A model generated the notes under the pieces. The model ran no database searches, was not told the DNA's origin, and saw only the letters and a list, made by a program, of their open reading frames with translations. 64,000 nucleotides of DNA from Sulfobacillus sp. (GTDB taxonomy: Bacteria; Bacillota; Sulfobacillia; Sulfobacillales; Sulfobacillaceae): positions 1 through 64,000 of the forward strand of contig DAIDDL010000011.1 in the NCBI GenBank assembly GCA_027309085.1, given 5' to 3'. Positions 2,475-58,180 of the stretch are shown here, one piece after another. A program made the translations under genes and the position numbers. The first letter of the stretch is position 1; each line of letters begins with the position of its first letter.

Positions 2475-2490
2475 AGGAAAGGAGACCACC

Positions 2491-5235: not shown

Positions 5236-5258
5236 GATAATTTCTCCTCCTTTTTGCT

Positions 5259-5274: not shown

Positions 5275-5302
5275 ATGTAACTCTTCTACCTCAATTTGTC
5301 AA
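5274..5302 (-). promoter_or_regulatory. sigma-A-type promoter of the 4906-5235 gene
   Basis: On the minus strand, TTGACA (5302-5297) is separated by exactly 17 bp from TACATT (5279-5274). The -35 is perfect and the -10 matches 5 of 6. It lies about 40 bp upstream of the ATG. Confidence 0.75.
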
Positions 5303-5627
5303 TAAGTCGGTGAGAATTTTGGTCTGTCCCAAGGATGAGCACTCTGTCTTTAGCGGGGAAACAGGCAGCATTTCACGAGATCGACTCCCCGGTCCGTCCC
5401 TGTGCCGGAAACCAGCCCACCGATGTGAAAAATCTGGAAACAAGTGGTAAGCTGAAAGAGTTCGCCGATGGTCAGGCCGCGCAGTCTGAGGGGATAATCA
5501 GGCGTTGCCGGAGGTTGCGATGCATCTGTCCGGCCCTCGAGACCCAACACCCGGCTTGATATCGCGGACAATTAGAAAGAAGGCAAGCGCCTTGCGGCGC
5601 GAATGACGCCCCTTACGGAGGGATACA
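5303..5627. other. intergenic region before the aminopeptidase gene
   Basis: About 325 bp without a supported gene. Short open frames on both strands lack ribosome binding sites and recognisable sequence. A small dyad GCAAG-CGC-CTTGC lies near 5584-5596, about 30 bp before the aminopeptidase start. No clear promoter was found. Confidence 0.5.
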
Positions 5628-8186: not shown

Positions 8187-8207
8187 TCAACGAGGCTTAA
8201 GCTTAAC

Positions 8208-8239
8208 GAACGGCAGCCGCGCTCTCCGGGCTGCCGTTC
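8208..8239. terminator. hairpin between convergent aminopeptidase and GH76-like genes
   Basis: A perfect 11-bp GC-rich stem (8208-8218 with 8229-8239) lies between two convergent genes, 21 bp after one stop and 9 bp from the other. The flanking T-tracts are weak, so it is probably a bidirectional terminator. Confidence 0.7.
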
Positions 8240-8248
8240 TAGCTTTCG

Positions 8249-9292: not shown

Positions 9293-9525
9293 GACGTAGT
9301 CTCCTTTGCCAAGGATTTCTGCCTGTTGACAGTGCCTCTTCCCGCCCAGTATCCCTCATGCGCTGCCTATTATTATGACCAAGGCGAAGCGGGCTGTGGC
9401 CGCTTCGCCAAAAGCGCATCTACCTGGCCCATGGCGTCTCTCTCGCTTGTCCCCTTCGCAGTTGTGCAATGGCCCAGCGCTCTCTGGCAGGACTGCAGCG
9501 AAATGGCTGGGTTGCCACGAGGCCC

Positions 9526-10083
9526 TCAACGGGGCTTGATGGCATCGACAAGAAGGGACGTGTAGCCTAGGTCCCCAGTTCTGTTGCGGTGGTCAAACCG
9601 CAGCGAACGGTAGATGAGCCCTTGCTTCTCGTCCCACGGATTGGCGTGAAATGCGCCCGATTCATCACAGTACTCTAGGAGATTGACCGTAAATCCAGCC
9701 GTCTGAAACATCGCGGCAATGGTGTGGTAGTCAAAGACAAATTGGTGGCTGGCGGCTGGGTGGTCTTGGGGTCCGGGGCCGCCCACTTGGGCATCTCTCT
9801 GGTATGCCTCGCCCGGAAAGAACCCGTCAGGCACGGCACAGCGTATATACCCACCGGGCTCAAGAAAATCGAAGCATGTCTCCGCCGCGTGGAGGCCTTG
9901 CTCATAAGACAGGTGTTCCCATACGTGCTCAGCCAGAATAGCGGCAATGCTCGAGGGCCCGAAAGATCTTTGCCAGTCCTGCCTGTTCAGCAGATTTAAT
10001 TGGCTGGCCTGTGTTTGAATCCAGTCAGGGTTATTGTTGTAAGGGCCCGCGCCAATCACCACTCTTAAAGGCTTTTGATGCAT
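9526..10083 (-). CDS. SAM-dependent methyltransferase-like protein
   Basis: This approximately 185-residue protein resembles the small predicted methyltransferases of the COG4627 type. RVVIGAGPYNNNPDWIQT at the N-terminus fits motif I and the following acidic/aromatic strand; AILAEHVWEHLSYEQG resembles the motif-IV region; FLEPGGYIRCAVPDGFF is the family's LxPGGxxRxxxPD signature. The frame is open to 10299, but the upstream part is unlike a protein; ATG 10083 with a G-run just upstream is preferred. The methyl acceptor is unknown; relatives occur in polysaccharide clusters. Confidence 0.65.
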   Translation of the reverse strand: MHQKPLRVVIGAGPYNNNPDWIQTQASQLNLLNRQDWQRSFGPSSIAAILAEHVWEHLSYEQGLHAAETCFDFLEPGGYIRCAVPDGFFPGEAYQRDAQVGGPGPQDHPAASHQFVFDYHTIAAMFQTAGFTVNLLEYCDESGAFHANPWDEKQGLIYRSLRFDHRNRTGDLGYTSLLVDAIKPR

Positions 10084-10439
10084 ACGTGCCCCCCGTTTTG
10101 ATAGACTTGTCCATACGTGCTCAATACGGACGCAATCTGGGCCGCCTTCATGGTTCATCGCTCGACGGCGGTGGGGGGTTTCCCGCAAGGGCACCCGCCA
10201 CCCGAGTCTCGGCTGGGCTGAAGCCCGGTGTAGACTGGCGATGCCTCCATCGCCGAAGTTCTCCCGAAGATGCATCCCTGTACGGACAGCATATTCCAAG
10301 AAATTGCGGCGGAAGATGTCTCCAGGTATGGACGGGTATCACATCACTGTTGTTCCGCCAGGCTGAACCCTTCTTTGCTCGCAACCTCCGAGGGGTTTGA
10401 CGCTGATTGGCAATATCCGGAAGCGATTGGAACAGACCG
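10084..10439. other. intergenic region between methyltransferase and ABC permease genes
   Basis: About 355 bp with overlapping short open frames on both strands, none with a good ribosome binding site or recognisable motif. No T-tract terminator was seen after the permease gene. Confidence 0.4.
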
Positions 10440-11261
10440 CTACCCTTTCACGGATCCTGCCAACAGTCCCCGCACAAAATACTTGCCAAGGAAAATGTAC
10501 ACGACAAGGGTGGGAATGGATGCCATTAGGGCACTGGCCATCTGCACGTTCCACTGAATGGTCTGACTGCCGGCAATATTTACCACGGCCACCGTTACTG
10601 GCTGGTGAGGGGGAACCGTGATGGCCACGGCAAACAGAAAGTTATTCCAAATCTGCGTAAACTGCCAGATACCGGCTACCACAAATCCGGCCGCGGACAG
10701 GGGTAAGATAATTCTCCGAAAAATACCCCAATACCCGGCTCCGTCAATCTTGGCGGCTTCGATCATCTCGTCCGGAATCGCGGCGTAATAGTTGCGGAAA
10801 ATCAACGTGGTGATAGGGATGCCGTACACGACATTGACGAGAATCAGCCCCGGAATTGTCCCGTACAGACCGATCGTATCCAACACCCGGAGCACCGGAA
10901 TGAGCACGGCTTGATAAGGGATAAACATCCCCATAAGAATGAGAAAAAAGACGGCATTGGCTCCTTTAAACTTCCATTTGGAGAGGGAATAACCGTTAGC
11001 CGCCCCAATCAACGCTGAAAGAATTGTGGCGGGAACCGTCAGGTAGACGCTATTGAGAAAGTTGGGACCTAGTTTTTGCCACGAGGCAGCCAGACTGGAA
11101 AAACTGAACTGCGTGGGCAAATCCCACATCTGGGCCAAGTTGATGCTGGCCCCTGATTTCAGGCTCGTCGTCACCACCAGGTAAACCGGCATCAGGTACA
11201 GGCCGGCAAAAATGATTAACACCACATACAGCAATGACCGGTTAAGTTGTCTGAGGGCCAT
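10440..11261 (-). CDS. sugar ABC transporter permease (MalG family)
   Basis: A 273-residue membrane protein with six predicted helices. The cytoplasmic EAA loop, which docks the ATPase, is visible as MIEAAKIDGAGYWGIFRRIILP. The C-terminal QFTQIWNNFLFA and the final VRGLLAGSVKG are typical of the MalG/carbohydrate-uptake CUT1 group. Its ATG lies at the stop of the upstream permease, so the two are coupled. It forms the channel dimer with that partner. No ATPase gene is adjacent; CUT1 systems in Firmicutes often share a distant MsmX-type ATPase. Confidence 0.92.
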   Translation of the reverse strand: MALRQLNRSLLYVVLIIFAGLYLMPVYLVVTTSLKSGASINLAQMWDLPTQFSFSSLAASWQKLGPNFLNSVYLTVPATILSALIGAANGYSLSKWKFKGANAVFFLILMGMFIPYQAVLIPVLRVLDTIGLYGTIPGLILVNVVYGIPITTLIFRNYYAAIPDEMIEAAKIDGAGYWGIFRRIILPLSAAGFVVAGIWQFTQIWNNFLFAVAITVPPHQPVTVAVVNIAGSQTIQWNVQMASALMASIPTLVVYIFLGKYFVRGLLAGSVKG

Positions 11262-12256
11262 TATGAATTTTCCTCCCTGTTCTCGCCGCGCAAGACGGAT
11301 AGCAGATAAGGCACGCTGAATGCGGCCATCAGCAGGAACAAAATGGTGGCAATCGCGGCCCCTTCTGCAAATTGGCTGCCTTGGAAGGTGGTGTCAAACA
11401 TGTTCAGTGTGGGCATATCCGTTGTAAAGTCCTGACCGGGTCCTGTCATGGCGTACACCAAGCCAAAAACCTTCAGTGAAGCGGCCGTCAGAATAATCAC
11501 GGCAGTGACGGTGGAGGATTTCAACTGAGGATAGATGACTGACCAGAACAGGCGCCAGGCACCTGCACCGTCAATGCGCGCCGCCTCTTTGATTTCATCC
11601 GGCACAGCCCGCAGTCCAGCGAGGTAGATGGCCATGGCAAAACCGGACATCTGCCATACGGCAGCAATGGCCACGGCGACCAGGGCCAGCGGTATTCCGA
11701 CTTTGATCAGCCCCAGCCCAATGGACGGAATGATAATCGGGCTTAAAAACCAGGTCGGGGGATGGCTGTCTCCCAGCGCCCGCAAAATCAGATTGATTCC
11801 CGCATTAGGCTGTGGATTGAGAACCCATGACCAAATCACCCCAGTTGCCACAAAGGAGATCGCCATGGGGAATATGAAAATGCTGCGGAAAAAACTTTCA
11901 AAGCGGATTTTCTGATCGATCAGCACGGCCAAAAACAGACCTAAGCTGAGACAGCCTAGAATGAACAGTGCGGTGAACACAATGATATTCCGGATGTCCG
12001 CCTGAAACCGGAACGTTTCGAACACCGCGGCATAGTTTTTCAATCCAGCGAACGAAAAATTTGGAATGTAACTATTCCAATTGGTCAGCGAGATGTAGCC
12101 GTTCCAGAAAATGAACCCGTAAACGAAGATGCCCAAGGCTATTAGCGAAGGGATGAGCACCAGGACCGGGGAAGCCTTGTCCCACGAAAACCGCCACTTG
12201 GGGCGCCGCGCCATAAGTGGCGCCCGGTCAGGCTCTTTCACCGCGTTCTTAATCAA
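11261..12256 (-). CDS. sugar ABC transporter permease (MalF family)
   Basis: Six or seven hydrophobic helices follow a short basic N-terminus. The EAA loop reads EIKEAARIDGAGAWRLFWSV, matching CUT1 permeases. The frame is open to 12313, but a TTG at 12256 lies six bases after a perfect AAGGAGG, and that start is chosen (331 residues). It is preceded by the substrate-binding protein gene (57 bp gap) and overlaps the second permease by one base. Together they would import an oligosaccharide or sugar; the substrate is not determined by sequence. Confidence 0.9.
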   Translation of the reverse strand: MIKNAVKEPDRAPLMARRPKWRFSWDKASPVLVLIPSLIALGIFVYGFIFWNGYISLTNWNSYIPNFSFAGLKNYAAVFETFRFQADIRNIIVFTALFILGCLSLGLFLAVLIDQKIRFESFFRSIFIFPMAISFVATGVIWSWVLNPQPNAGINLILRALGDSHPPTWFLSPIIIPSIGLGLIKVGIPLALVAVAIAAVWQMSGFAMAIYLAGLRAVPDEIKEAARIDGAGAWRLFWSVIYPQLKSSTVTAVIILTAASLKVFGLVYAMTGPGQDFTTDMPTLNMFDTTFQGSQFAEGAAIATILFLLMAAFSVPYLLSVLRGENREENS

Positions 12257-12312
12257 ATCCGACCCTCCTTGAGAAAGAAGGCAGCAAGTGTGAAGACTTG
12301 CTGCCGTGTGCA

Positions 12313-13608
12313 TTACGACAAAGGACTAGACTGCGCTGCGCTTGCCACAGCGGTGACGAATTGGGATACGTTGTGATTGCTGATCAAGATGTCCATGGCG
12401 TTGTTCACGGCGGTAGTAAAGGCAGGATTCACAGCACCTTGACCGATGACCAAAACCAGTTGGTCCTTTTTATAGGACTGCATTGCCGAACGGGAGTAGG
12501 CGTCGTAATCGGCGGGATTTGCGTCCAGGCGCGGTGAGAATGTGCCTTTCAGCGGGTTGAAAATATCCTGGCCCTTCTTAGAACCCAGGACTTTAAGGTA
12601 GTCCAATGTGGCTGTCTGGTTCTTCAAATGTGAAGGCAGTCCGAAAACGTCTGATACCACGGCAAAGGTGCCGGCGCTGCCCGGAGTTGGAGCCCATCCG
12701 AATCCCGTGCCGGGAGTGAGGTGAAGGTCCGTGGTGAAGTAGCCCTGCGCCCAGTCCCCCATCACGTTCATCGCTGCGGACCCCTGTGCGACGAGTTGGT
12801 CAGCCTGCTGCCAGTGCAGTGCCGTGTAGTCGCTATTGGTATAGGCCAGCATTTTCACAAAGGTCTTGGTAGACTGAGTGACACCGGGAGCGCTCCAAGA
12901 GGTTTTACCCGTGAGGAGTGCATCATATTCCTGGGGGCCAACGGTGCCTAGCAGGACATCGCTCCACAGCAGGGTTGCCTCCCAGTCGCCATGGTTGGCT
13001 AGCGCGAGCGGCGTAATATTATGCGATTTGAGGACCGCAGCATCGCTGAAAAACTGGGAAAATGTCGTAGGAGCCGTCAAGTTGTATTTTTTAAATATCG
13101 TAGGATTGTACCACAGCACATTTCCCCGCTGCATGTCGACGGGAACCGCGTAGATTTTGCCGTTAAAAGTCAAAAGATTCAGTAATGATTGAGGATAGTC
13201 CTTGTACCATCCTTCTTCTTTATACAGCGAGTTCAGGGGAGCCATGTCGCTCGCCTGTACCCAGGAGTACAGCGACCCGCGTCCCGCATGCACTTGGAAC
13301 GTCCCGGGCGGATTGTTGGCTTCCATGCGGCTGGCCAACACCGCCTTGGCATTGGATCCCGCCCCTCCCGCCACCGCTTCGTTGATGACTTTAATACTGG
13401 GATATTCCTTGTTGAACTGTGCGTCCAAAGCCGCCAAAGCCTTGCTGCTGGCCACTCCAGTCCACCAACTGAATATTTGCAGCTGTTTTGGCGAGTTGTT
13501 TGACTTGGCTGGAGCCGCCGCGCTCTGCGTCCCGCACCCTGCCAGCGCCAAAGTACTAGCGGCAAGCAGCGTGGCAAATCCTATCCCTACACTACGCTTC
13601 ACCATCAT
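12313..13608 (-). CDS. sugar ABC transporter substrate-binding lipoprotein
   Basis: A 431-residue extracellular solute-binding protein of family 1. A signal sequence ends in the lipobox LALAGC (Cys near 25), so it is lipid-anchored outside the membrane. FSWWTGVASSKALAALDAQF is the typical first strand and helix of the mature domain; later motifs such as NVMGDWAQGYF and AVVSDVFGLP also fit the family. ATG 13608 follows GAGGAGGAT. First gene of the minus-strand transporter operon, divergent from a ROK regulator that probably controls it. Confidence 0.92.
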   Translation of the reverse strand: MMVKRSVGIGFATLLAASTLALAGCGTQSAAAPAKSNNSPKQLQIFSWWTGVASSKALAALDAQFNKEYPSIKVINEAVAGGAGSNAKAVLASRMEANNPPGTFQVHAGRGSLYSWVQASDMAPLNSLYKEEGWYKDYPQSLLNLLTFNGKIYAVPVDMQRGNVLWYNPTIFKKYNLTAPTTFSQFFSDAAVLKSHNITPLALANHGDWEATLLWSDVLLGTVGPQEYDALLTGKTSWSAPGVTQSTKTFVKMLAYTNSDYTALHWQQADQLVAQGSAAMNVMGDWAQGYFTTDLHLTPGTGFGWAPTPGSAGTFAVVSDVFGLPSHLKNQTATLDYLKVLGSKKGQDIFNPLKGTFSPRLDANPADYDAYSRSAMQSYKKDQLVLVIGQGAVNPAFTTAVNNAMDILISNHNVSQFVTAVASAAQSSPLS

Positions 13609-46438: not shown

Positions 46439-49400
46439 CTATAAGGACAGCAGTTCCCTCACGTCATCTTCTGTCAGGGCGGACAAGCCTTCGTCATTGG
46501 CCTGCACGACCTGGTCAATCAGGTGGCGCTTCTTCTGCTGCAGCTCGTAAATCTTCTCCTCAATGGTGCCCTTGGTGATGAGCCGGATCACTTGCACGGA
46601 CCGTTTTTGCCCGATGCGGTGGGCCCGGTCGGCAGCCTGTTCCTCGACGGCGGGATTCCACCACAGATCGTACAGAATGACCGTATCTGCTCCGGTCAGA
46701 TTTAGGCCAGTCCCCCCCGCCTTTAGGGAAATCAAAAAGATTGGGCGCTTCCCATCATTGAACCGGTTGCAAAGGTCCAGCCGGTCAGCCACGGGGGTGC
46801 TGCCGTCGAGGTAAAAGTAGCTGATTCCCCGCTGGTCCAGTTCGGACCGGATGATGGCCAGCATGGATGTAAACTGGGAGAAAATGAGCATGCGCTTGTC
46901 GGCGCCCATCCCTTCGTCAATGATCTCGAGGAGCTGGTCGAGTTTGCCTGACTCTCCTTGATAGTTTTCCACAAAGAGTCCTGGGTGGCAGCATATCTGC
47001 CGCAACCGTGTGAGTCCAGCCAATATTTTGAACCGGCTCTTGTGAAAGGTCTCGACAGACAGGTCGCGGGCGGTTTCTTTACGCAACTGGGCCAGGTATG
47101 CCAAATAGATCTTCTTCTGCTCCACCGCCAAGTCTGTCGTGTTCACTGTCTCAATTTTTTCAGGGAGCTCCTTCAGCACATCCTTCTTGAGACGCCGCAA
47201 CAGAAAGGGGCGGACGCGCCGGGCTACAATCTCGGGCGGGAGCTGCGAGAATTCTTCCCGACCACCAAACAGCGCAGGGAATACCGCATGAAAAATTGAC
47301 CAGAGGTCGTCGAGGGAATTTTCCACCGGAGTGCCCGTCAGCGCAAAGCGCTGGTCACTCTTCAGGTCGAAAATGGCCTGGGCTGTTTGCGTCGCATGGT
47401 TTTTGATGGCCTGGGCCTCGTCCAGAATGAGCGTGTGGAAACGCTGTGAGGAATACGTCTGCAGGTCCCGGCGAAGCAACGGATATGAGGTAATCAGCAC
47501 ATCATACTCCCGGGACCGCTCCAAGAGAGCCGCCCGTTGGCTGCGGGTGCCTGCGATGACAGCAGACTTCAAGCTAGGAGCAAACTTGTGAATCTCACTC
47601 TCCCAGTTGTAAACCAGGGACGCTGGGCAGATAATCAGCACGGGGTGCTGGAACGGGCCACCCTCCCGTTCCGAGAGCAAAAATGCGATGCTTTGCAACG
47701 TCTTCCCCAGACCCATATCGTCTGCTAAAATACCTCCGAAGCCGTAATGGGCAAGCGTTTTCATCCACTGAAATCCGTAGCGCTGATAGTCGCGCAGCAC
47801 ATGGCCCAGAGTTTCAGGCGCCTGAAAGTCCAAATTGTCCGGATTGCGCAGATTGTCAAGCCAGCGGCGCAGAGACTTTCCTAGTTTAACCGCCATCTGC
47901 CGGTCGTCGTGTTCGATGAGGGCCAGCGCCCGGTGCCCAGGAAGCTTTAGGGAGCCGCCTTCCAGCTCCTTGCTGTTCAGGCCCATGTCTGCCATCAGCT
48001 CGCCAATCTGCTGAAACGCCTCATCACTGAGGGGGACGAAGGCCCCGTCCGGCAGACGGTGGTAGGGACGCTTCTCAATGATGGCTGCCAGTACTTGCTG
48101 TATGTCAGAAGGACTCAGGTCGCCAAAATCGAAAGAGACGTCCAGCCACCCGGTTCTCTCATCAATCTCCAGTCTGGCTTTTGGCTGGTAGCTGGAAGGT
48201 CCCACCATAGAGTGCACGGCCTGCGTCACAAACACCTCGGCCGACTGCTCAAGAAGGGGTAGGACATTGAAGAGAAATTGGTATAATTGCCTTTCTCCCT
48301 CCAGATACAAAACTTGACCCCTCGCAGTGAATCCCGCCTGCAGGAGCGCGGACAGGATGCGTTCCTCCCCTTCGGAATCGCGCAGCAGAATGAGTCCTTC
48401 TTCACCGCGCCGGTCCGCCGGGGCCAGCGCGTCCAGAATGCTCTCGCCGTAGACGTAGCGAACCTTCACACTGAGCTCGTCTTCGTCCCGGTCAAGATAT
48501 AGGCGCACAATAAGCGGGTGATCGGCAATGCGGTTGGTTACCTCCTTTGCGATGCGCACCGCCGCGAACGATCTCAGGTCGGGAATGACCGTGTCCATTA
48601 CCGCTTCGAGATCGGATCCCGACATCTCTATGGGTTCGTGAGAGGATGCCATAACCACTGTCTTCAGTTCAGCGATTCTCGCCAGGTGGATCTCGTCGAG
48701 GGGGTAAATGCTTCCCTCAGCCAGGGCGCAACGGTAAGCCTCCATGATCATCAGCCGGTCCAGCCCCTCAATCTGCAGGGCGTATTGCCCGCCCGGGGTG
48801 CTCTTCACTACGGCGGTCATGGGAAGACCGGCAGGATCTGGGTCAAGGGCCCACTCGCCCCCGTGTTCGTAAGCCACAATTGTGTTGGCTCCGCGCAGAA
48901 GGGAAATTAACGATTCCCAGGCGAACGGGGGAATGTACAATCTGCGGCTGTTCGTGCCGCCGTATCCAGAATACCCGCTGTAGCCCCGGGAGCCGTAGGG
49001 GTTGAAAGTCTTTTGGTAGAAGCTGTCCTGGCGCCTTACGTCCTGCAGTGCTTCGACGACTGCCAAATCCTTGGGTTCGAAGGCATGAAGCGTTGGGTCA
49101 AAGGTGAACCGCTTGCTGAATACGTGAGGTTGCCCATTCGAAGTCTTCTGTAAAAACTCCTCAATGTTTTGCACCACGTACAAGCGGTCTAAGCCAACTT
49201 TCATTTCAATGAGAAAAATTCCAGACCGGTAGTAGGTTGCCGACGGGCGCAGAATGAATTGCGCCTGCAGGCGCGGTTGGCCAGGCCGAATTGCCAGCGG
49301 TGGCTGCAAACGTGAGGTCCGGGCGGTGTTGCGGTAAATAGCCAGCAGACGCTGTGCCGCCGAGGGTGCCGCGGGTTTGACTGGGACCACCGGTGCCGCG

Positions 49401-49750
49401 GGCACCGGTGGTTTAACGGCCGGGGCAGGCTTTGGCGCCGGTGTCACGGCTGGCGGCTTGGGATGACCGATATTGGGCCTGACGAGATTGAGCAGCACCG
49501 CCACGATGTGCTTGCACCACGAACCCGTTACAAAAGCTGGACATTCACACGCGGCGTCGATCTCTCCGTTGGGGAGAGCCACAATATCAACGGTGTACAG
49601 GACCCGGCCTTGCACTTTGCCAATCCAGTGCGAGCTGTCCTGTTCATCTTGCTGGCATGACGTAACGCGCTGCTGCTGGTAGTAGGCCTGCCCCCTTTGA
49701 AAGTACGTGTTGCCTGCTCGGCGTTTAATGACTTCAGGTGTTAATACCAT
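46439..49750 (-). CDS. SWIM zinc-finger SNF2-family helicase
   Basis: This 1103-residue protein begins with a SWIM zinc finger (CECPAFVTGSWCKH, about residues 69-82), then a Pro/Ala linker, and a middle domain of about 450 residues with a GYSGYSGYGG-rich loop. The SF2 motor follows: Walker A ADDMGLGKT near 678, DEAQ in motif II, LTGTPVENSLDDLW in motif III, and GGTGLNLTGADTVI ... QAADRAHRIGQ in motifs V-VI. SNF2 ATPases move along or remodel protein-DNA complexes. The layout resembles bacterial SWIM/SNF2 helicases (HepA/RapA class). It is the last gene of the minus-strand module, 177 bp after the ATPase at 49928. Confidence 0.93.
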   Translation of the reverse strand: MVLTPEVIKRRAGNTYFQRGQAYYQQQRVTSCQQDEQDSSHWIGKVQGRVLYTVDIVALPNGEIDAACECPAFVTGSWCKHIVAVLLNLVRPNIGHPKPPAVTPAPKPAPAVKPPVPAAPVVPVKPAAPSAAQRLLAIYRNTARTSRLQPPLAIRPGQPRLQAQFILRPSATYYRSGIFLIEMKVGLDRLYVVQNIEEFLQKTSNGQPHVFSKRFTFDPTLHAFEPKDLAVVEALQDVRRQDSFYQKTFNPYGSRGYSGYSGYGGTNSRRLYIPPFAWESLISLLRGANTIVAYEHGGEWALDPDPAGLPMTAVVKSTPGGQYALQIEGLDRLMIMEAYRCALAEGSIYPLDEIHLARIAELKTVVMASSHEPIEMSGSDLEAVMDTVIPDLRSFAAVRIAKEVTNRIADHPLIVRLYLDRDEDELSVKVRYVYGESILDALAPADRRGEEGLILLRDSEGEERILSALLQAGFTARGQVLYLEGERQLYQFLFNVLPLLEQSAEVFVTQAVHSMVGPSSYQPKARLEIDERTGWLDVSFDFGDLSPSDIQQVLAAIIEKRPYHRLPDGAFVPLSDEAFQQIGELMADMGLNSKELEGGSLKLPGHRALALIEHDDRQMAVKLGKSLRRWLDNLRNPDNLDFQAPETLGHVLRDYQRYGFQWMKTLAHYGFGGILADDMGLGKTLQSIAFLLSEREGGPFQHPVLIICPASLVYNWESEIHKFAPSLKSAVIAGTRSQRAALLERSREYDVLITSYPLLRRDLQTYSSQRFHTLILDEAQAIKNHATQTAQAIFDLKSDQRFALTGTPVENSLDDLWSIFHAVFPALFGGREEFSQLPPEIVARRVRPFLLRRLKKDVLKELPEKIETVNTTDLAVEQKKIYLAYLAQLRKETARDLSVETFHKSRFKILAGLTRLRQICCHPGLFVENYQGESGKLDQLLEIIDEGMGADKRMLIFSQFTSMLAIIRSELDQRGISYFYLDGSTPVADRLDLCNRFNDGKRPIFLISLKAGGTGLNLTGADTVILYDLWWNPAVEEQAADRAHRIGQKRSVQVIRLITKGTIEEKIYELQQKKRHLIDQVVQANDEGLSALTEDDVRELLSL

Positions 49751-49925
49751 GCGGCTCCCTCACTCCTTGATTTACACGGAATCCTATAAAATGAGCAACA
49801 ACCCATGGAACGATTTCTGTAAGACCTGCGTGAAGGCAGCAGGTCATCTCCGCTATTCCCCCTGCGGGGTCCATGCCGGCGTTGCGTTGCCGGAAGATCT
49901 CAACCCATGGCTGCAAGCTCGCCAC
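49734..49925 (-). CDS. possible small ORF between ATPase and SNF2 genes
   Basis: A 63-codon frame with GTG at 49925, two bases after the stop of the upstream ATPase gene, ends 17 bases inside the SNF2 gene, so it fills the gap exactly. It shows no recognised motif, and the ribosome binding site is weak. It may be a coincidental open frame. Confidence 0.25.
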   Translation of the reverse strand: MASLQPWVEIFRQRNAGMDPAGGIAEMTCCLHAGLTEIVPWVVAHFIGFRVNQGVREPHGINT

Positions 49926-49927
49926 CT

Positions 49928-51196
49928 TTATTCCAGAAAGTCTGCGCGGTATACATTGCCCGAACCTGGGGCGTTGCCGTCCACGTGCGCACCCTCAGTC
50001 GGGCCCGTCTTCCCCTGGTCTTCTGCCAGGTCTTCGTCTTCTACCTGCCCGATGCTTAAAGACGGGTCGACTCCGTATTGGAACCAGGTATCCAGAATTG
50101 TCAAGCTCAGGCGGACTACCGTGCGCAGGCGGGTATCTTGGGCTGGAGCCAAATTGCGGATCAGGCGGATTAGGTCCAGCGGCTCTTGTGGCGGCTGCCA
50201 CGAATAGGCATCACGGTGAAAACTGTAGATTTGCATAATCAACTGGTCCACCTGGTCCCGCGACAGCGGCTCAAGGGATTTGGCTTCGACTAGAGCTCCA
50301 ATTCCCTCTTGGCAAAAGGCGGCGAGATGCTGCTCTTTCGGGCGGGACTGCAGCCAACTGGGGGCAGCAGCCTGGTCATTGCGCTGATAAATGACATCCG
50401 TGAGAAAGTTGGACGCTAGCGCCCACACGGTCAGGAGGTGCGGGGTGGCTAGGTTGAGGAGGCGGCCAATCGAGGCGTAGGCCCGACTTCTGGCGCCCCG
50501 CCCAAACTTGCCAATCAGTTCCACCTCGTCAAACAGAATCAGCCACCCCTGGTAGCCAGCGCGGTGGATCAGCCAGTCGACAAGGCGCAGATATTCAAAC
50601 GCTTCCTCCCGCATCACCGTCCGTTCGAGCTTCAACGCCCGCGAAAAATTGCCGCGGTAAATCCGCTTCAGTTCAGCGGCGGTGAGAAATGTGCCGGAAA
50701 TATCCTGTATCAGCTCGGGATATCCTTCGTTATGGGCCACCAAATTGTCCAAAATGGTCATGACCCGCGCCGAAAATTCCATGGCGCGCGCCTCCGCTAA
50801 AATTTGGGGAGCTTTCAAGCCCTCGTCGACAATCGACTCAATCCCTGCCAGCTTCCCGCCTGGCACGAAGGTGCTGTCAATAATTTTGGGATAAATCTGG
50901 TCTAATCGGTCCAACGGCGTTTCCTTGCTGAGACTGATATAACTGACCACCCAGTTGCGATCGGCGGCCGAGCCCCAAAACGACTGGAGAAGATGCGTTT
51001 TACCCTCGCCGTAGTGGGCCCGGATCACCATGGCGGGAAATTTTGGACGACGAGCGTCCTCAGTTTGCTCCATGAGCCGGTTCAATTGGGTGATCTGGCT
51101 TTCACGCCCGAACACGATCGCTTGGGCCATTTCCTGATACGGGATGCCAGACCGCAGTCCTTCCACGACGCGCCGGAGCCGCTGTGGGTCGTCCAT
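49928..51196 (-). CDS. P-loop ATPase, BREX BrxC/BrxD-like (DUF2791 type)
   Basis: This 422-residue protein has Walker A in RAHYGEGKTHLLQ (about residues 59-71), preceded by FGRESQITQLNRLM, and a Walker B-like GWLILFDEVELIG near 220. That combination, with the HYGEGKTH version of the P-loop, is what I know from the BREX ATP-binding proteins BrxD/BrxC (DUF2791). The C-terminal 60 residues are acidic and low complexity. It starts directly at the stop of the upstream ATPase gene (TAA then ATG) with a GGAGGGGGACAAC ribosome binding site inside that gene. Function within the module is unknown. Confidence 0.75.
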   Translation of the reverse strand: MDDPQRLRRVVEGLRSGIPYQEMAQAIVFGRESQITQLNRLMEQTEDARRPKFPAMVIRAHYGEGKTHLLQSFWGSAADRNWVVSYISLSKETPLDRLDQIYPKIIDSTFVPGGKLAGIESIVDEGLKAPQILAEARAMEFSARVMTILDNLVAHNEGYPELIQDISGTFLTAAELKRIYRGNFSRALKLERTVMREEAFEYLRLVDWLIHRAGYQGWLILFDEVELIGKFGRGARSRAYASIGRLLNLATPHLLTVWALASNFLTDVIYQRNDQAAAPSWLQSRPKEQHLAAFCQEGIGALVEAKSLEPLSRDQVDQLIMQIYSFHRDAYSWQPPQEPLDLIRLIRNLAPAQDTRLRTVVRLSLTILDTWFQYGVDPSLSIGQVEDEDLAEDQGKTGPTEGAHVDGNAPGSGNVYRADFLE

Positions 51197-52387
51197 TTAG
51201 TTGTCCCCCTCCAATGCGTCTTTCAGTTGCCGTGCGATGCGGCGGCGGACCGGCGACCAGTCCAGTTCCACGCTGCGGGGCACCACGTCCGCCTCGCCAG
51301 TCCGCACTCCTTGAAAATGCCGGGCGGCCCAGACTCTCTCCACGGTGTCCAAATCTTCATGATTGACGGACCACAGGCGGTCCCAGTCGATTAAGTCATT
51401 GAAGCGGTTAATCTGTGTCATAAAGATTTCAGACTGAATCCGGGACCACAGAGCCGGGTAGGAGGGGAATCCCAGACGGCCGTCCTCGAACAGCTCAGGA
51501 GAAGCGGCCAGCATCACAAACAAGTAGGCGGCGTGGTGGCTGTCATCGATCAGTTCCCGCCACATTTCATAAGCTTGATCGCGGGCGGTCCGGGTGTAAT
51601 AGGGCACATCATCCCGGCGCTGGCGGGTGGCCATCACCTGGCCATTGTCAATGAGCACAGCCAGGCCATGGTAACCTGCCGCATGACAGAACACAGCCAG
51701 GGAGAACAGCATGGCCCGGGCGTTGCGGCGGTCAATCACGCCTGGCACCCCCAGAGACTTTTTCTCGGCGGCGGTAATCCGCTCGCCCATCAGCCAGCGT
51801 TCGGTCACGGGGTTCTCGCTGCCTTCCGGTTCCATGGCCCGCAGCATCCACTGCCGCATCACTCCCCCCCACTGGGCGTCGAGGCCTTGCCGGCCAATCC
51901 AGCGGTCTGACGCGTCCCGCACATCGCTGTGCAAAATCGAGGCGTTGCGTCCCCTGGACTGTTGCGCCCACCCCCAAAATTCCCTCGGGCTGCCAGGGAA
52001 GTCGTGATAACCGAGCTCGTCCTGGATCATGCGCACTGCAGCTCTCCCAACCAGGTCGCTCCAGGCTATATGCTGCGCCACCACCTTATACAGTTCGTCG
52101 ATGGCAGCCAGACGGGTGTGAGTGCCGTCGATGAGAACCGCCTGGTAATCCAGATCGCCGAGGGTCAAGGCCAGATGCCGCAGAAAGTGGGTTTTCCCCG
52201 ATCCGGGCCGTCCTTGAACGAATTTGAGTTTGCCTGCCCCCTGGTCAACAAATCCCGCCAAATACCATTTTTGGATGAAGGCCTCCATTCCTGCCGGATC
52301 TACGTACGTATCGCGAATGGCCGCGTCATCCAGCATTTCGGATGACGGGTCGTTGGCAAATTGCCACAGGGTTTCATTGAGATTCAT
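51197..52387 (-). CDS. second P-loop ATPase of the module
   Basis: About 396 residues. Walker A is GRPGSGKTHFLRHLA near residue 60, and GLAVLIDNGQVM near 240 fits a Walker B strand with a non-standard acidic pair. The fold order resembles its neighbour at 49928, so the two may form a hetero-oligomer. ATG 52387 follows AAGGAG; the frame is open to 52426 but the upstream part lies inside the preceding gene. It overlaps that gene by 14 bases and abuts the next. Confidence 0.7.
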   Translation of the reverse strand: MNLNETLWQFANDPSSEMLDDAAIRDTYVDPAGMEAFIQKWYLAGFVDQGAGKLKFVQGRPGSGKTHFLRHLALTLGDLDYQAVLIDGTHTRLAAIDELYKVVAQHIAWSDLVGRAAVRMIQDELGYHDFPGSPREFWGWAQQSRGRNASILHSDVRDASDRWIGRQGLDAQWGGVMRQWMLRAMEPEGSENPVTERWLMGERITAAEKKSLGVPGVIDRRNARAMLFSLAVFCHAAGYHGLAVLIDNGQVMATRQRRDDVPYYTRTARDQAYEMWRELIDDSHHAAYLFVMLAASPELFEDGRLGFPSYPALWSRIQSEIFMTQINRFNDLIDWDRLWSVNHEDLDTVERVWAARHFQGVRTGEADVVPRSVELDWSPVRRRIARQLKDALEGDN

Positions 52388-53216
52388 CAGCGGTCTCTCC
52401 TTCGGGCACGAGTTCCAACGACCCAAAGGCCGTTTTAGTTCCCCCGGGGACGGGAATCGTGACGGCGTCCGCGGCCCGCCGGCCTTCCCCTAAAACCAGG
52501 TGATACCCTCCATAATGGAGGGTCTGGAGGCGCACCCGGTAGAGGTCAAAGGCAAACTGGCTGAGACTGTAGCCCCCGGGTCCAGTCCGGATGGTCATCA
52601 CCTCATAAATCTGCTTGAGCGGCAGGGCGCGGATCAGCGCCTGGTTGGGGTGTTCGGCCTGCCATTCATGGAGGACGATGTGATAGGCCCGCACCAGGGC
52701 TTTGAGGAATTGGTTGGCATTGAACCGTTCCCGGTACAGCTTGTCAATTTGTCCCAAGACTTGCAGGGCGGCGGCTTTCGGGTCCAGCGCCCGGACGGTC
52801 CGGTTGTTGATTAAGACCAGGTCATGGGCAAAGTCGACTTTCACCTCCAAGGGAAACACCCGAAACGATGGAAATTCGCCATCCACCGCGTGGCCGCCTT
52901 TCTGGCACTCCCGGATAAAGACTGCGCTCCATGCCACGCTGTCCGTTTCGTATCGGCCCAGTTGAAAGGCCTCAAGACTCTTGGCTATCTCGGCGCCCAG
53001 CGAGAGGGCCTGGGCATTTTCGCCAAGCAGTTCCTCCACCTGCTTGCGAAGCTCGGTCAGATTGAGCAGTCCGGCTTGTTTGGCCAGCTTTTTGGATCGT
53101 CCCATGCGCTCAGCCAGCTTGGCGAGCTCTTCAATTTGCGGTTCAATATTCTCAGTGAACTGATCCCAACTGTTTTTCACGCCGCTATTCTCTTGGCGCT
53201 CTCCGACTGATTCCAT
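52374..53216 (-). CDS. unknown module protein with coiled-coil N-terminus
   Basis: A 280-residue protein that I cannot assign. The first 90 residues are helical and charged (EPQIEELAKLAERMGRSKKL and LRKQVEELLG), suggesting a coiled coil; the remainder is mixed alpha/beta. No nuclease, methyltransferase or Walker motif is seen. ATG 53216 follows GGAAGGAGAC. It is 56 bp after the YhaN-like gene and overlaps the ATPase gene, so it is probably an adaptor or specificity factor for the ATPases. Confidence 0.65.
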   Translation of the reverse strand: MESVGERQENSGVKNSWDQFTENIEPQIEELAKLAERMGRSKKLAKQAGLLNLTELRKQVEELLGENAQALSLGAEIAKSLEAFQLGRYETDSVAWSAVFIRECQKGGHAVDGEFPSFRVFPLEVKVDFAHDLVLINNRTVRALDPKAAALQVLGQIDKLYRERFNANQFLKALVRAYHIVLHEWQAEHPNQALIRALPLKQIYEVMTIRTGPGGYSLSQFAFDLYRVRLQTLHYGGYHLVLGEGRRAADAVTIPVPGGTKTAFGSLELVPEGETADESQ

Positions 53217-53272
53217 ATATTGTCTCCTTCCATTGCCTGTTAGTGGATTGTTCAGGGTGGCAGTCCCCTCAT

Positions 53273-56200
53273 TTAAGTCCTGACAGGCTGCTGCGGTCCC
53301 AGATAATGCACGTGCAGATGGTCATGCGCCGCAAGCTGTTGAGCTTGGTCGACTACCGACTGGTGGTGAGTAAAATACAGGATCTGTGTCTGCTCACCCA
53401 GTTCGTGCAGAACTTCCAAGGTGGCCTGGGTCCTGGCGTCATCAAAGTGCACAAGAATATCATCCATTACCAGGGGCAGAGGCTCAGAACCCGCCAGATG
53501 CTGTTCGACAAAAGCCAGGCGCAAGGACAAGAAGAGTTGGTCGCGGGTGCCGTCGCTGAGCTGGAATACACGGCGCCTGCTGCCGTCTGCATGAACAGCA
53601 AGCAGATACGGCGCGCTGCCATCGTATTCCACCAGCAGTTCTTCGTACTGGCGCAGGGTCATCCGCCGGAACAACTGTCCCGCACGGTGTAAAATGGCGG
53701 ATTCATTGCGCTCGCGGAACTCCTCGATGGAACGCTCAAGCAGCCGTCGAGCCAATTCGACCCGGAGGTACTCGTTCCACAGCCGGTCCACCTCAGCCAA
53801 ATGCTGCTGCCCCTGCTGTGCGAATGCGGCGGCCGCTTCATGGGTTTCATTAATGTGCGCGAAGGCCGTCTGCAGCGTCTGCAGGTGGTCCTTTTCCCGC
53901 TCAATGTCTCCCCTGATGCCATCCTGCCTCCCTTCGAGCACGCTCTTTTGCGACTCTAAAGTGTCTGGATCTCCCAGCTCTTCCAGGGATTGGGCAATGG
54001 CGTCCACGCTCATGCCGTCAGCGGCCTGCCGGATTCTGCGTTCCTGGGAGAGTTTCTCCTCAGCGAGCTTGCGCCGCTGGCGCGATATTTCAACGTGGGC
54101 GCTCAATTGGGCAAGGTCCGCGGCATGACACTGCGCTTGGTAGTGCTGCAGCTGTTGCGCGATCAGTCCCGCTTCTGCCCCGTGCTGGTCCGCTTCACTG
54201 AGCAGGCGCGCCTGCTCAGCTTCGATACTATGCAAGAGTTGCTCCGTCTCCCTCGCATTGTGCATGCGCTGGCGGGCTTGGCGCACCCACGACTCCACAG
54301 AGGCAGCCTCGGCCAGGTTCTCACCGAGCTGCTCGGCGACGGCTAGGGCCTGCCGTTCAAATTGGTGGCAGATCTCTTCGCTGGTGCGGATAGCCGTCTC
54401 CATCTGCTCTATCTCTTGCACTCCGCGAAGCAGCTCCCTGAGGTGCTGGGAGTAGTGCAAGGCGTCCTGCGGCCTTGGGGGCAGAGATGGATAGGCGCGG
54501 ATCACGGACTCCCACTCTTCGTCTTGAAGCTGCAATTGCTGCTCCCACTTGGTTAGAGACTGGGTCCGGGCGTGGATCTTTGTTTCGAGCACGCGCCTTT
54601 GATCCCAGAGCGTGCGGCGTTTCAGATCCCGCTCGCCCATCATCCGCGCGTAGTTCTCGCACTGTTCGAGCGCGTCGTTCAGGGTGAGCGCGTCCCCCAC
54701 TTGACAGTGTGCCTCTTGGGCCGCGGTGGCTAGGGCCTGCCGCAATTGGGCCTGGTGCTGGGTCAATTCGGCCCTATCCGCCTCGCTGGCGTCCAGTTCC
54801 CCGAGCATCAACACCAAGGGGGCATGAAAGGCGCTCATCCATTCCCGCATTTCTCCCGGGCTTTTGGGGAGGATTCCGCACGGCTGCCATTCCCCTGCCC
54901 ATAACGTCTCAAGCTGTGAGAACTGGATGTCAAGGGATTGGCGCCTCTTGGCATTGTCTGCCAGAGCCTGCCTGGTCTGGTCCTGTTTCATCAGCAACAA
55001 GGCCCGGTTGGCTGAGCGGTCGGCTTCCCGCCGCATAGCGTCCACCACCTGGTCAGCGTTCGCCAAGCACTGGGCAAAGTCGTCAGCTAAATCCTGCGGG
55101 GCGACCCCCTCAGGCAGCACGTGGTGCAGCCACGACTGTTTGACGCGGGTCCAAGCATCTTCTCTCAGGGACCGGGCCTCAAGCAGGTCTGATGGCACCG
55201 GCACCTCCCCCTGCAGTTCCAACACCTCTAAATCATTCGCCAAAGACACCGCTGCCGCTCTCAGAGTCTGATGGTCGCGGCGGGCTTCACTCCGTTCCTG
55301 TTCCAGGCTTGCCCACTGGCCAGCATAACGTTCTACCGTGTCGTGAAGCGGCAACGGCAACATCTTAAGACCGCGAAGGGAGCCTGCATACAGTGTTTGT
55401 TGGCGAAGCCGCTGGTCTATTGCCTGCTGTTTGAGCTCAATGTCCCGGTCGGCCTGGGCGATCTTCCCCTGAACATTGCCCTCCTCACGGATTGTTCGGA
55501 TCAGCCCGCTGAGATGCGACACGTCATAAATGGGCCCGAGAGCCTCTAAGTCCTTCTCCACCTTGGCAGAGTCCTCGATGAGCTCTTCGCACTGCGCCTG
55601 TTCCAAGGCGTAATTCGCACGGGCGCCAGCGATTTCCTCGGCGAGGGTGTCAATGCGGTTGAGTGCCGTCAGAGGCAGTCGGAGCTGGTCGATCTGCGGC
55701 CAGAAAGTGCCTGGCGACAACTCCTGAAGGCGCTGTTCAGTTTCGGCCTTGCGCTTTTGCCTCTGTTCCCGGGCTGCCGGGAGATCGGTGTCCCGCAGGG
55801 ACAGAAACTGCATAAGTCCTTCGCTCAGCCTCTCAATCGAATCGGCCAGGGACGTTGCCTGGGGATCTGGATGGAGTGCATGAGCCCGTTCTGCCTGCCT
55901 CCGGCACTCATCCTCTGCGCGCGCCTGGCTCTGCGTGTTTTCTCCGTGCTTTTTGAGCAGTGTCAGAATGTTTTCCTCGTCATGCGGCGAGACAGTGGCC
56001 GGCCCCAACTCCTCAAGCTCTTGCTTCATGGCCTGCCATTCGCTAATCATCGGGCGCACCCGCAAGAGGCGGGTCACCTTCTGCCAGGCGGCGTCTACGT
56101 CGGCTAGTTGGCGTTCTAACTGTTCGGCGCGCTGCTCGCTCAGAAAAATCTCCTGCCGCTGCCGGTGCCATTCCTCCGCCCGCAGGCTGGACTGCTTGAG

Positions 56201-56788
56201 GCTTTTTTGGGTGTCAATAAAGGATCGCCACTGCTTATTCAGCTCTTTGGCAGAGCGCGCATTAAAGCTCGGGTCGAGGAGCTGCGCGGAGCGGTCTGCC
56301 AGACTGCCCAGCAGTTTGGTCAGGTACTGGACGCCCCCCCCGGCTTCAAAGAGAGAAATACCAGCCTGGCCCTGCGAGTCGAGCAGGCTCTGGCCGCCTG
56401 CCCGCAGGCGCTCGTGGTCAAACCCAAACAGCAGCGCAAACGGCTCGCGGGTATATCCTCCAAGATATCGCGCCAGCGCGTCTTCCGACAATTCCGGGTG
56501 GTCAGCGTCTGTGAGGACCAGCCGGTTGTAGCGGCGTTTGCGCTCAATGCGGTACACGGCCCGGTCCGAGCGCTCGATGACCCCCTCGATTCGGGAGCGG
56601 CTGTCGTAATGGTCGCGGAAGGATTCTGCAATGGTCCCCCCAAACAGCAAGTCCATGATGAGGGTCAGCAGGGTGGATTTTCCCGTCTCGTTGGGTCCGT
56701 GCAAGATGTGCAGCCCGCCGTGATCCAAGTTCAGCTGGAAGGCTTCATAATGCAGCACCTGGCGGACAGCAATGCTCCGTATTTTCAC
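53273..56788 (-). CDS. YhaN/SbcC-like SMC-type ATPase
   Basis: This 1171-residue protein has an ABC head split by long coiled coils. Walker A is HGPNETGKSTLL (about residues 33-44); the C-terminal head shows the signature FQLSDGTRDQLFLSL and Walker B LPLVMDDILVHFDD, followed by the His switch ILYFTHHQSV. The central coiled coil contains no CxxC zinc hook, which separates it from SbcC/Rad50 and favours the YhaN type. The GTG start overlaps the nuclease stop in GTGA, so both subunits are made together. It probably couples ATP hydrolysis to DNA-end processing by the nuclease. Confidence 0.88.
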   Translation of the reverse strand: MKIRSIAVRQVLHYEAFQLNLDHGGLHILHGPNETGKSTLLTLIMDLLFGGTIAESFRDHYDSRSRIEGVIERSDRAVYRIERKRRYNRLVLTDADHPELSEDALARYLGGYTREPFALLFGFDHERLRAGGQSLLDSQGQAGISLFEAGGGVQYLTKLLGSLADRSAQLLDPSFNARSAKELNKQWRSFIDTQKSLKQSSLRAEEWHRQRQEIFLSEQRAEQLERQLADVDAAWQKVTRLLRVRPMISEWQAMKQELEELGPATVSPHDEENILTLLKKHGENTQSQARAEDECRRQAERAHALHPDPQATSLADSIERLSEGLMQFLSLRDTDLPAAREQRQKRKAETEQRLQELSPGTFWPQIDQLRLPLTALNRIDTLAEEIAGARANYALEQAQCEELIEDSAKVEKDLEALGPIYDVSHLSGLIRTIREEGNVQGKIAQADRDIELKQQAIDQRLRQQTLYAGSLRGLKMLPLPLHDTVERYAGQWASLEQERSEARRDHQTLRAAAVSLANDLEVLELQGEVPVPSDLLEARSLREDAWTRVKQSWLHHVLPEGVAPQDLADDFAQCLANADQVVDAMRREADRSANRALLLMKQDQTRQALADNAKRRQSLDIQFSQLETLWAGEWQPCGILPKSPGEMREWMSAFHAPLVLMLGELDASEADRAELTQHQAQLRQALATAAQEAHCQVGDALTLNDALEQCENYARMMGERDLKRRTLWDQRRVLETKIHARTQSLTKWEQQLQLQDEEWESVIRAYPSLPPRPQDALHYSQHLRELLRGVQEIEQMETAIRTSEEICHQFERQALAVAEQLGENLAEAASVESWVRQARQRMHNARETEQLLHSIEAEQARLLSEADQHGAEAGLIAQQLQHYQAQCHAADLAQLSAHVEISRQRRKLAEEKLSQERRIRQAADGMSVDAIAQSLEELGDPDTLESQKSVLEGRQDGIRGDIEREKDHLQTLQTAFAHINETHEAAAAFAQQGQQHLAEVDRLWNEYLRVELARRLLERSIEEFRERNESAILHRAGQLFRRMTLRQYEELLVEYDGSAPYLLAVHADGSRRRVFQLSDGTRDQLFLSLRLAFVEQHLAGSEPLPLVMDDILVHFDDARTQATLEVLHELGEQTQILYFTHHQSVVDQAQQLAAHDHLHVHYLGPQQPVRT

Positions 56789-58047
56789 GGCTGGCCCCCT
56801 CCTCTTGCCAGCATCGCCACCAGCACATCGCGGGCATCGGACACCAAGTCCCTGACCTCCTCGGCAGATGCGATGACGGTGGAGCCTTCGGAGCGGAGGT
56901 AATCCGGCATGCGCATCTGGATTGTCTGCATCTCGCTGGCGAAAAGCTCAAGAAACTCGGGACGGACTTCTGTCTGCTGAATAATGCGGTCCAGTTCCGA
57001 AATGGCGTCTGTGCGGTCAGGCAAAGACTGGCCGGTCTCTTCGCCTTGGGTATCAAATATCACTTTTTCCACCCAAATTCTGTCGATGGCACTTTGCTGG
57101 GCGGCATTTACAATCTCATTGAGGTAATATTCCGATTCGGCCAAGAGGGAGCCGTGCAGGGCGGTTTGGCCGGTCAGCCGGATGCGGAGGGCCAAAGGGT
57201 AGCCGGGGTTGGCGGCGGTGGTTTGTTGGAACACAGACATCACGCGGCCAACCACATCCTCCGCACGGAGGGTCCCCGTCAAGTCCACCTCACACAGAGC
57301 CCAGCGCAAGACGTCAAGAGAGCGGTGCTGCAAATCAATACGGCCGGAATCGACCGTGACCAGAGTGCATCCCTTGTCCCCGGTTTCACGGATGTGCCGC
57401 CCCTGAAGGTTGCCTGGATACACAATGCACGGACTGGTGTCCCGAATCACCTGCCTTTTGTGCACGTGCCCCAGGGCCCAGTAATCGTATCCCTTGGCAG
57501 TCAGGTCGTGGACTGTACAGGGGGCGTAGGTCTCATGTCCTTCGTGTCCCTCGAGGGACGTGTGCAGCACGCCAATATTGAAATACCCCGGCACTGGCAA
57601 CGGGTACTGGGGAACCAGGTTTTGCGTCACTATGCGGTCCTTGAATCCCTGACCGTGCAGCGCCACCTGGAGGTCGTCGATGACGAAGGTCTCGGGCTGG
57701 TCACTAGAAAAGCGGTGCACGCCACTCGGCAGCAGCAGTTTGCGGCTGATGGTGCTGGCGGCGTCGTGATTGCCGCTCACTATATAGACCCTGATATCGT
57801 GGGCGGTCAGCCGCGTCATGCAGGCATTGAAAAATAGTCCGGTGGAATAGTCCTGCCAATCGCCGTCAAATACGTCGCCAGCGATCACGAGAAACCGCAC
57901 GTGTTCCTCGATACACAGCTCCACCAGGTTGTCGAGGGCGCGCCGGGTGGCAGAACGGATGGCCTCTGCCGGAGCGTCCTCGCGTAAGGACAGTCCGCGA
58001 AGCGGGCTGTCTAGATGCAGGTCAGCGCAGTGAACAAATTTAAACAT
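56785..58047 (-). CDS. YhaO/SbcD-like DNA exonuclease (metallophosphoesterase)
   Basis: About 420 residues. All five phosphoesterase motifs are in order: CADLHLD, AGDVFD, SGNHDA, the IGVLHTS strand with His, and GHVHKR. The first 240 residues form the catalytic domain, followed by a capping region, as in SbcD/Mre11/YhaO. ATG 58047 with GGGGAGG upstream is chosen; the frame is open to 58062. It is the first gene of the minus-strand module. Partner is the overlapping YhaN-like ATPase; together they resemble the Bacillus yhaO-yhaN pair. Confidence 0.9.
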   Translation of the reverse strand: MFKFVHCADLHLDSPLRGLSLREDAPAEAIRSATRRALDNLVELCIEEHVRFLVIAGDVFDGDWQDYSTGLFFNACMTRLTAHDIRVYIVSGNHDAASTISRKLLLPSGVHRFSSDQPETFVIDDLQVALHGQGFKDRIVTQNLVPQYPLPVPGYFNIGVLHTSLEGHEGHETYAPCTVHDLTAKGYDYWALGHVHKRQVIRDTSPCIVYPGNLQGRHIRETGDKGCTLVTVDSGRIDLQHRSLDVLRWALCEVDLTGTLRAEDVVGRVMSVFQQTTAANPGYPLALRIRLTGQTALHGSLLAESEYYLNEIVNAAQQSAIDRIWVEKVIFDTQGEETGQSLPDRTDAISELDRIIQQTEVRPEFLELFASEMQTIQMRMPDYLRSEGSTVIASAEEVRDLVSDARDVLVAMLARGGGQP

Positions 58048-58180
58048 CAAATACCTCCCCATCCGTCAAAATCCGGGAAAATCTTCTCCAATTATAGCAG
58101 GACGCGCTGTTTTAGAGGAAAGGGGTAAAGCTTGTGGGCGGCGTAAAACAAAATGACTACAGAAAAACCACGAAATCCCC

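What the first reader, a model, noticed from the sequence alone, without database searches (positions are those of the whole stretch)
46439..58047. Compact module: YhaO/YhaN-type nuclease-SMC pair + unknown protein + two BREX-like ATPases + SWIM-SNF2 helicase
Six same-strand genes are packed with GTGA, TAA-ATG and 8-14-bp overlaps, except for the last 177-bp gap. The set pairs a DNA-end nuclease complex with DUF2791/BrxD-like P-loop ATPases and a SNF2 motor. It lacks a PglX methyltransferase, PglZ phosphatase, DISARM DrmA/B or topoisomerase subunit, so it does not match BREX, DISARM or Wadjet. I infer a DNA-processing or anti-phage/anti-plasmid system not named in my knowledge.
Basis: partly seen in the sequence, partly recalled or inferred. 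Interest (0 to 1): 0.8.

Follow-up and report, generated by a model that had tools for sequence, protein, structure and literature searches.

The report
Mobile ORC-like ATPase trio plus helicase
Three of the six genes form a widespread, apparently undescribed gene set (two AAA+ ATPases related to the replication factor ORC/Cdc6, plus a protein of unknown family) that in other bacteria sits directly beside DNA motors of phage-defence systems, while the neighbouring repair-type nuclease pair is an unrelated resident.

Summary
The six genes exist as described, but they are not one module. YhaO-YhaN is a vertically inherited pair; in the nearest relative it abuts the cytochrome gene directly and the other four genes (about 7.0 kb) are absent. 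The real unit is a trio: P280 (no known family), A396 (BrxD-like, degenerate ATPase) and A422 (BrxD-like, intact ATPase). It keeps gene order and strand in 77 of 77 loci from about ten phyla. Directly beside it lies an exchangeable DNA motor: BrxL (17 loci), a SNF2-Mrr helicase-nuclease (16), Shango genes (5) or another SF2 helicase (4). SF2 helicases make up 25 of 127 large genes within two positions of the trio and 0 of 215 further away. The window copy lacks BrxL and has a SWIM-SNF2 helicase in the motor slot, a pairing seen only here. A422 models as ORC/Cdc6; A396 lacks the catalytic Walker-B glutamate in 79 of 80 sequences. I infer an ORC-like loader or switch, one ATPase live and one dead, that puts a motor on foreign DNA: defence related to BREX and Shango but a member of neither. 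No function has been tested, and I found no published description.

The parts
52374..53216 (-). P280: first gene of the conserved trio, 280 aa, no known family; predicted N-terminal coiled-coil hairpin (17-83) and an alpha/beta C-terminal domain
   Evidence: no Pfam/NCBIfam/PADLOC match; 15-member alignment; model pLDDT 84.9; always directly upstream of A396
51197..52387 (-). A396: BrxD-like AAA+ protein, degenerate partner (Walker A GRPGSGKT kept here, Walker B DN instead of DE)
   Evidence: PF10923 93 bits; Walker-B glutamate in 1 of 80, Walker A in 49 of 80 family members
49928..51196 (-). A422: BrxD-like AAA+ ATPase with intact Walker A (GEGKTH) and Walker B (LFDEVE); ORC/Cdc6-like predicted fold
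   Evidence: PF10923 82 bits; motifs kept in 80-81 of 81; model pLDDT 84.0 and best matches archaeal ORC2 and Cdc6/Orc1, Z 16.4-14.3
46439..49750 (-). SWIM + SNF2_assoc + SNF2 helicase in the motor slot, 177 bp downstream of A422; probable but unproven partner
   Evidence: Pfam; SF2 helicases enriched next to the trio elsewhere; does not group with SNF2 of its own genus; pairing with the trio seen only in this genome
46264..53299 (.). segment of about 7.0 kb (trio + SNF2) absent from the corresponding site in G004; gained here or lost there
   Evidence: homology with L172 stops at window 53300 and resumes at 46263; no flanking repeats
53273..58062 (-). YhaO (56785-58062) and YhaN (53273-56788), nuclease-SMC pair; a resident neighbour, not part of the trio system
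   Evidence: present across the genus without the trio; vertical tree; no association

Best explanation
P280-A396-A422 is a mobile three-gene, ORC/Cdc6-like AAA+ module that works with a DNA motor encoded next to it. A422 is the ATP-hydrolysing subunit, A396 a degenerate partner that completes an asymmetric complex (as ORC, RFC and the BREX pair BrxC/BrxB combine active and inactive AAA+ subunits), and P280 a coiled-coil adaptor. I propose that the complex assembles on incoming DNA and loads or switches on the motor: MCM-like BrxL in the sister lineages, SNF2-Mrr or a Shango helicase elsewhere, and the SWIM-SNF2 translocase in this genome. The motor then blocks replication of phage or plasmid DNA or, where a nuclease is fused, cuts it. 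Shown: the conserved trio, its adjacent exchangeable motors, intact versus degenerate ATPase sites, the ORC-like predicted fold of A422, the separate history of YhaON. Inferred: complex formation, the loader role, the defence function, and SNF2 as partner here (about 0.6). How self is told from non-self is unknown; no methyltransferase is in the locus.
For: Order and strand conserved in 77 of 77 complete trios in about ten phyla. BrxL directly downstream in 17 loci; SNF2-Mrr in 16 and Shango-type genes in 5, SngB E=8e-123 and SngC E=1e-168 in L095. SF2 helicases 25/127 near versus 0/215 far, p=3e-12. Patchy distribution: 2 of 8 genomes of the genus, 18 of 398 of the phylum. A422 intact, A396 degenerate. 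ORC/Cdc6 fold of A422. BrxL resembles MCM and may need a loader; BrxC, BrxB and BrxD are of the ORC clade (PMC10164562). BrxD is proposed to load BrxHI (PMC12839542). Shango protects against phages (PMC10250203).
Against: No functional data. The window locus is not in a defence island (neighbours are metabolic genes). About half of the trios have no recognised motor beside them, some because contigs end. The A422 protein was not found in phage or plasmid collections. Some trios lie near repair genes (RecD2, RmuC, SbcCD). The SWIM-SNF2 partner rests on one genome. A loader role for A422 rests on a predicted fold only.
Confidence: 0.55

Rival explanations
1. The trio is a DNA-repair or replication-restart accessory: an ORC-like loader for helicases at breaks or stalled forks that serves chromosome upkeep, not defence.
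For: RecD2 near the L082 trio, RmuC near L088, SbcCD upstream of L105, YhaON in the window; window locus has no defence neighbours.
Against: Each repair neighbour is seen once, while BrxL, SNF2-Mrr and Shango genes recur; the distribution is patchy and 27 of 41 relatives or more do without it (15 of 41 have it).
Confidence: 0.2
2. The window copy is a trio that lost its motor: BrxL was the ancestral partner, and SNF2 is only a neighbour. The trio here is decaying or acts with a motor encoded elsewhere.
For: Sister lineages have BrxL; this genome has none; related SNF2 genes stand beside YhaN without the trio in G013 and G016; SNF2 and trio do not co-occur beyond chance in the family (p=0.65).
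Against: All three ORFs and the A422 motifs are intact; SNF2 is co-oriented 177 bp downstream, does not group with the SNF2 of its genus, and is missing together with the trio at the G004 site. It does not contradict a defence role of the family, so its probability overlaps with the main explanation.
Confidence: 0.4
3. All six genes form one operon-like system in which YhaON supplies the nuclease.
For: Same strand and short gaps; one other locus has SbcCD upstream of a trio on the same strand (L105).
Against: YhaON is inherited with the genus and sits at the same site in G004 without the other four genes; no YhaN hit and one weak YhaO hit in 80 trio loci; no association.
Confidence: 0.07

Closest known systems
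BREX (BrxD of types 2 and 6, BrxC/BrxB, BrxL)
   Same: ORC-clade AAA+ ATPases of the BrxC_BrxD family, and BrxL directly downstream of the trio in 17 relatives
   Different: Two BrxD-like ATPases, one degenerate, plus P280; no PglX, PglZ or BrxC in the locus; both ATPases score 55-70 bits against the BrxD equivalog cut-off of 350
Shango (SngA, SngB, SngC)
   Same: A BrxD-type ATPase beside an SF2 helicase; five relatives have Shango-type genes directly upstream of the trio
   Different: The trio in those loci is additional to SngB; window ATPases score 34 and 62 bits with SngB against 409 for the true one; no SngA or SngC in the window cluster
Zorya ZorD and other SNF2-Mrr defence helicases
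   Same: SNF2-Mrr helicase-nuclease next to the trio in 16 loci; the window SNF2 shares the motor domain
   Different: No ZorA/ZorB; the window SNF2 has no Mrr nuclease domain
Orc1/Cdc6-MCM replication licensing
   Same: A422 folds like archaeal ORC2 and Cdc6/Orc1; BrxL is structurally MCM-like (PMC10164562)
   Different: Analogy only; no replication role shown, and sequence similarity is not detectable
YhaO-YhaN / SbcCD / Mre11-Rad50
   Same: The neighbouring pair 53273-58062 is of this kind
   Different: Not a component of the trio system on the evidence here

Membership tests
BREX | PglX/BrxX methyltransferase in the locus | tested here: not met
   No such domain in any of the six genes
BREX | PglZ in the locus | tested here: not met
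   None in the six genes; the genome's PglZ genes are on other contigs
BREX | BrxD at the level of the equivalog model | tested here: not met
   55 and 70 bits against a cut-off of 350; family-level PF10923 is met
BREX | BrxL | tested here: not met
   Absent from this genome, controls positive; present directly after the trio in 17 related loci
Shango | SngB ATPase | tested here: not met
   34 and 62 bits only, against 409 bits for the SngB of L095
Shango | SngA (TerB-like) and SngC helicase | tested here: not met
   P280 matches no PADLOC family; neither SngA nor SngC is among the listed matches of the six genes (for the SNF2 gene only the best 25 of 42 are shown)
Zorya / DISARM / Wadjet | ZorAB, DrmA/DrmB or JetABCD components | tested here: not met
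   Only the shared SNF2 or SMC-type ATPase domains match
ORC/Cdc6-type AAA+ ATPases | ORC-type AAA+ fold with intact Walker motifs (A422) | tested here: met
   Five best structural matches are archaeal ORC/Cdc6, Z 16.4-14.3, 243-252 residues, rmsd 3.3-4.2; motifs
Anti-phage defence system | Protection against phage or plasmid | not testable with these tools
   Needs an experiment; only genomic association is available here

The most novel reading that the evidence does not exclude
A widespread bacterial defence family in which an ORC/Cdc6-like heteromer (one live and one dead AAA+ subunit, plus P280) loads interchangeable motors (MCM-like BrxL, SNF2, SNF2-Mrr, Shango SngC) onto invading DNA: a defence analogue of replication licensing that needs no DNA-modification enzyme.
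Probability: 0.35. Interest if true: 0.85.

Novelty: new variant of a known kind. Interest (0 to 1): 0.66.

Why it matters
It separates a portable ATPase core from the motors beside which it appears: the same trio occurs next to BrxL, Shango genes, SNF2-Mrr and other helicases. That would link BREX and Shango by one shared logic (ORC-clade ATPases serving a DNA motor) and would provide a four-gene system, without methyltransferase or PglZ, in which the open question of what loads BrxL onto DNA can be tested directly.

Tried and rejected
Canonical BREX, DISARM, Wadjet, Zorya or Shango membership of the window cluster: tested with Pfam, NCBIfam and PADLOC and rejected. YhaON as a component: rejected by synteny, tree and co-occurrence. 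The trio as a remnant of this genome's own BREX: that system lies on another contig with its own BrxC, PglX, PglZ and helicase. Single-sequence scans with P280 (viral contigs) and A422 (genome contigs) found nothing; the A422 alignment gave 133 matches, 80 kept. tblastn of A422 against plasmids and phages: none. No flanking repeats at the segment edges and no promoter or terminator beyond chance. Literature: no paper found that describes the trio; the library is open-access only. Genes next to several distant trios proved ordinary and unlike one another.

Full report
1. The observation. The six minus-strand ORFs are present and intact. Pfam identifies YhaO (Metallophos), YhaN (AAA_27), two BrxC_BrxD ATPases (PF10923, 82 and 93 bits against a cut-off of 22.2) and a SWIM + SNF2_assoc + SNF2 helicase. 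The 280-residue protein (P280) matches nothing in Pfam, PADLOC or NCBIfam and nothing meaningful in PHROGs. Gaps are -4, +56, -14, 0 and +177 bp, slightly looser than reported. The genome is a draft of 4.49 Mb in 172 contigs. Its relatives correspond to records titled Bacillota, and a Sulfobacillus genome is among the trio's hits, so a Sulfobacillus-like member of the Bacillota is inferred.

2. It is not one module. P280, A396 and A422 stay together: all 14 relatives read with context have them in this order on one strand, and so do 77 of 77 complete trios among 80 loci from a scan of 84,980 species genomes, mostly overlapping or within 30 bp. By record titles these include Bacillota, Cyanobacteria, Chloroflexi, Acidobacteria, Actinomycetota, Gemmatimonadetes, Armatimonadetes, Atribacteria, Coprothermobacterota, Thermodesulfovibrionia and Syntrophobacterales. 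The loci were found through A422, so the conservation is conditional on A422 being present. The trio is patchy: 15 of 41 relatives, 2 of 8 genomes of the own genus, 18 of 398 genomes of the phylum. YhaO-YhaN, in contrast, is in nearly all genomes of the genus whether or not they have the trio, shows no association with it (p=1.0), and its tree follows the genus. In G004, the closest YhaN relative, YhaN is followed directly by the cytochrome gene that in the window lies beyond SNF2. Homology stops at window 53300 and resumes at 46263, so trio and SNF2 together are a segment of about 7.0 kb gained here or lost in G004. No repeats mark its ends.

3. The trio's neighbours. Clustering of neighbouring genes and family searches show one motor slot with exchangeable occupants. 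BrxL is directly downstream in 17 loci. A SNF2-Mrr helicase-nuclease is adjacent or one gene away in 16, in 13 of which a gene of about 187 aa and no known family lies between. Shango-type genes lie directly upstream in five loci; in L095 the ATPase is SngB (E=8e-123) and the helicase SngC (E=1e-168), while the gene at the SngA position has only a weak SngA match (E=3e-5, in L094). ResIII-type helicases occur in four. Among genes of 300 aa or more, SF2 helicases are 25 of 127 within two positions of the trio and 0 of 215 further out (p=3e-12). Caveat: the helicase profiles were built mostly from clusters that recur near the trio, which favours near hits. In the family, BrxL occurs in 7 of 15 trio genomes, adjacent to the trio or, in G009, at contig ends consistent with adjacency, and in 1 of 20 others, where it lies close to PglZ (p=0.011).

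4. The window copy. In the concatenated tree its sister lineages (L070, L071, L073) carry BrxL; this genome has no BrxL at all, with positive controls. Its motor slot holds the SWIM-SNF2 gene on the same strand, 177 bp downstream. This SNF2 does not group with the SNF2 genes of its own genus and is absent together with the trio from the G004 site, which fits joint arrival. Against this, related SNF2 genes stand tail-to-tail with YhaN, without the trio, in G013 and G016; SNF2 and trio do not co-occur beyond chance in the family (p=0.65); and the pairing was seen nowhere else. I put the chance that SNF2 is the working partner at about 0.6.

5. Mechanism. A422 keeps Walker A in 80 of 81 sequences and the Walker-B DE in all 81; A396 has the Walker-B glutamate in 1 of 80 and a Walker A in 49 of 80. 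The A422 model (pLDDT 84.0) matches archaeal ORC2 and Cdc6/Orc1 best (Z 16.4-14.3), then eukaryotic ORC, TnsC and RFC. P280 is predicted with good confidence (pLDDT 84.9) as a coiled-coil hairpin plus an alpha/beta domain; its PDB matches cover only the coiled coil. BrxL forms rings on DNA and resembles MCM, and its authors suggested that other factors, perhaps BREX components, load it; they also placed BrxC, BrxB and BrxD in the ORC clade, with BrxB lacking the Walker residues (PMC10164562). BrxD has been proposed to load BrxHI (PMC12839542). I therefore propose that the trio is an ORC-like loader or switch with one live and one dead ATPase that serves the adjacent motor against foreign DNA. 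Adjacency, conservation and motif states are shown; the fold is predicted; complex formation, loading and the defence role are inferred. Self/non-self discrimination is unexplained.

6. Comparison and novelty. The window locus is not BREX (no PglX, PglZ or BrxC; far below the BrxD equivalog cut-off), not Shango (no SngA or SngC; weak SngB similarity), not Zorya or DISARM. It works, I think, like the ATPase-plus-motor part of those systems. No paper in the searched library describes the trio; subscription papers and the newest defence catalogues could not be checked. Verdict: new variant of a known kind, with one unassigned protein family (P280).

7. Rivals. A DNA-repair role is kept at 0.2, because RecD2, RmuC and SbcCD occur near single trios. 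That this particular copy lost its motor is kept at 0.4; that reading is compatible with a defence role of the family, so the figures are not mutually exclusive.

Noticed in passing
L207 (G000:C82:45001-65000), 668-13426: The same genome holds a separate BREX-type cluster on another contig: BrxC, PglX, PglZ and a DrmD/BrxH-like SNF2 helicase, followed by two OLD/GajA-like ATPase genes. No BrxL in the genome.
   Followed up: partly
L091, L093, L094, L095 (and broken in L090), upstream of the trio: Shango-type genes (SngB- and SngC-like, weak SngA-like) directly upstream of P280 on the same strand, giving loci with three BrxD-like ATPases.
   Followed up: partly
L125 11276-11836 and equivalents in 12 further loci: A gene of about 187 aa without any Pfam or PADLOC match lies between A422 and the SNF2-Mrr gene in 13 loci of several phyla; probably a further subunit.
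   Followed up: no
L082 4681-6903; L088 11766-13265; L105 2083-5831: Trios without a recognised motor lie near RecD2, RmuC or SbcCD genes, one case each. Chance, or a link to DNA-end processing.
   Followed up: no
L169 5478-12530; L170 1252-4548: In two other genera a SWIM-type SNF2 gene stands tail-to-tail with YhaN without the trio; G013 holds three such SNF2 copies.
   Followed up: partly
window 52374-53216 to 46439 versus G009:C163 and G009:C218: In G009 the trio ends at a contig end inside the start of BrxL, and BrxL lies at the end of contig C218, so trio-BrxL linkage is split by the assembly.
   Followed up: no
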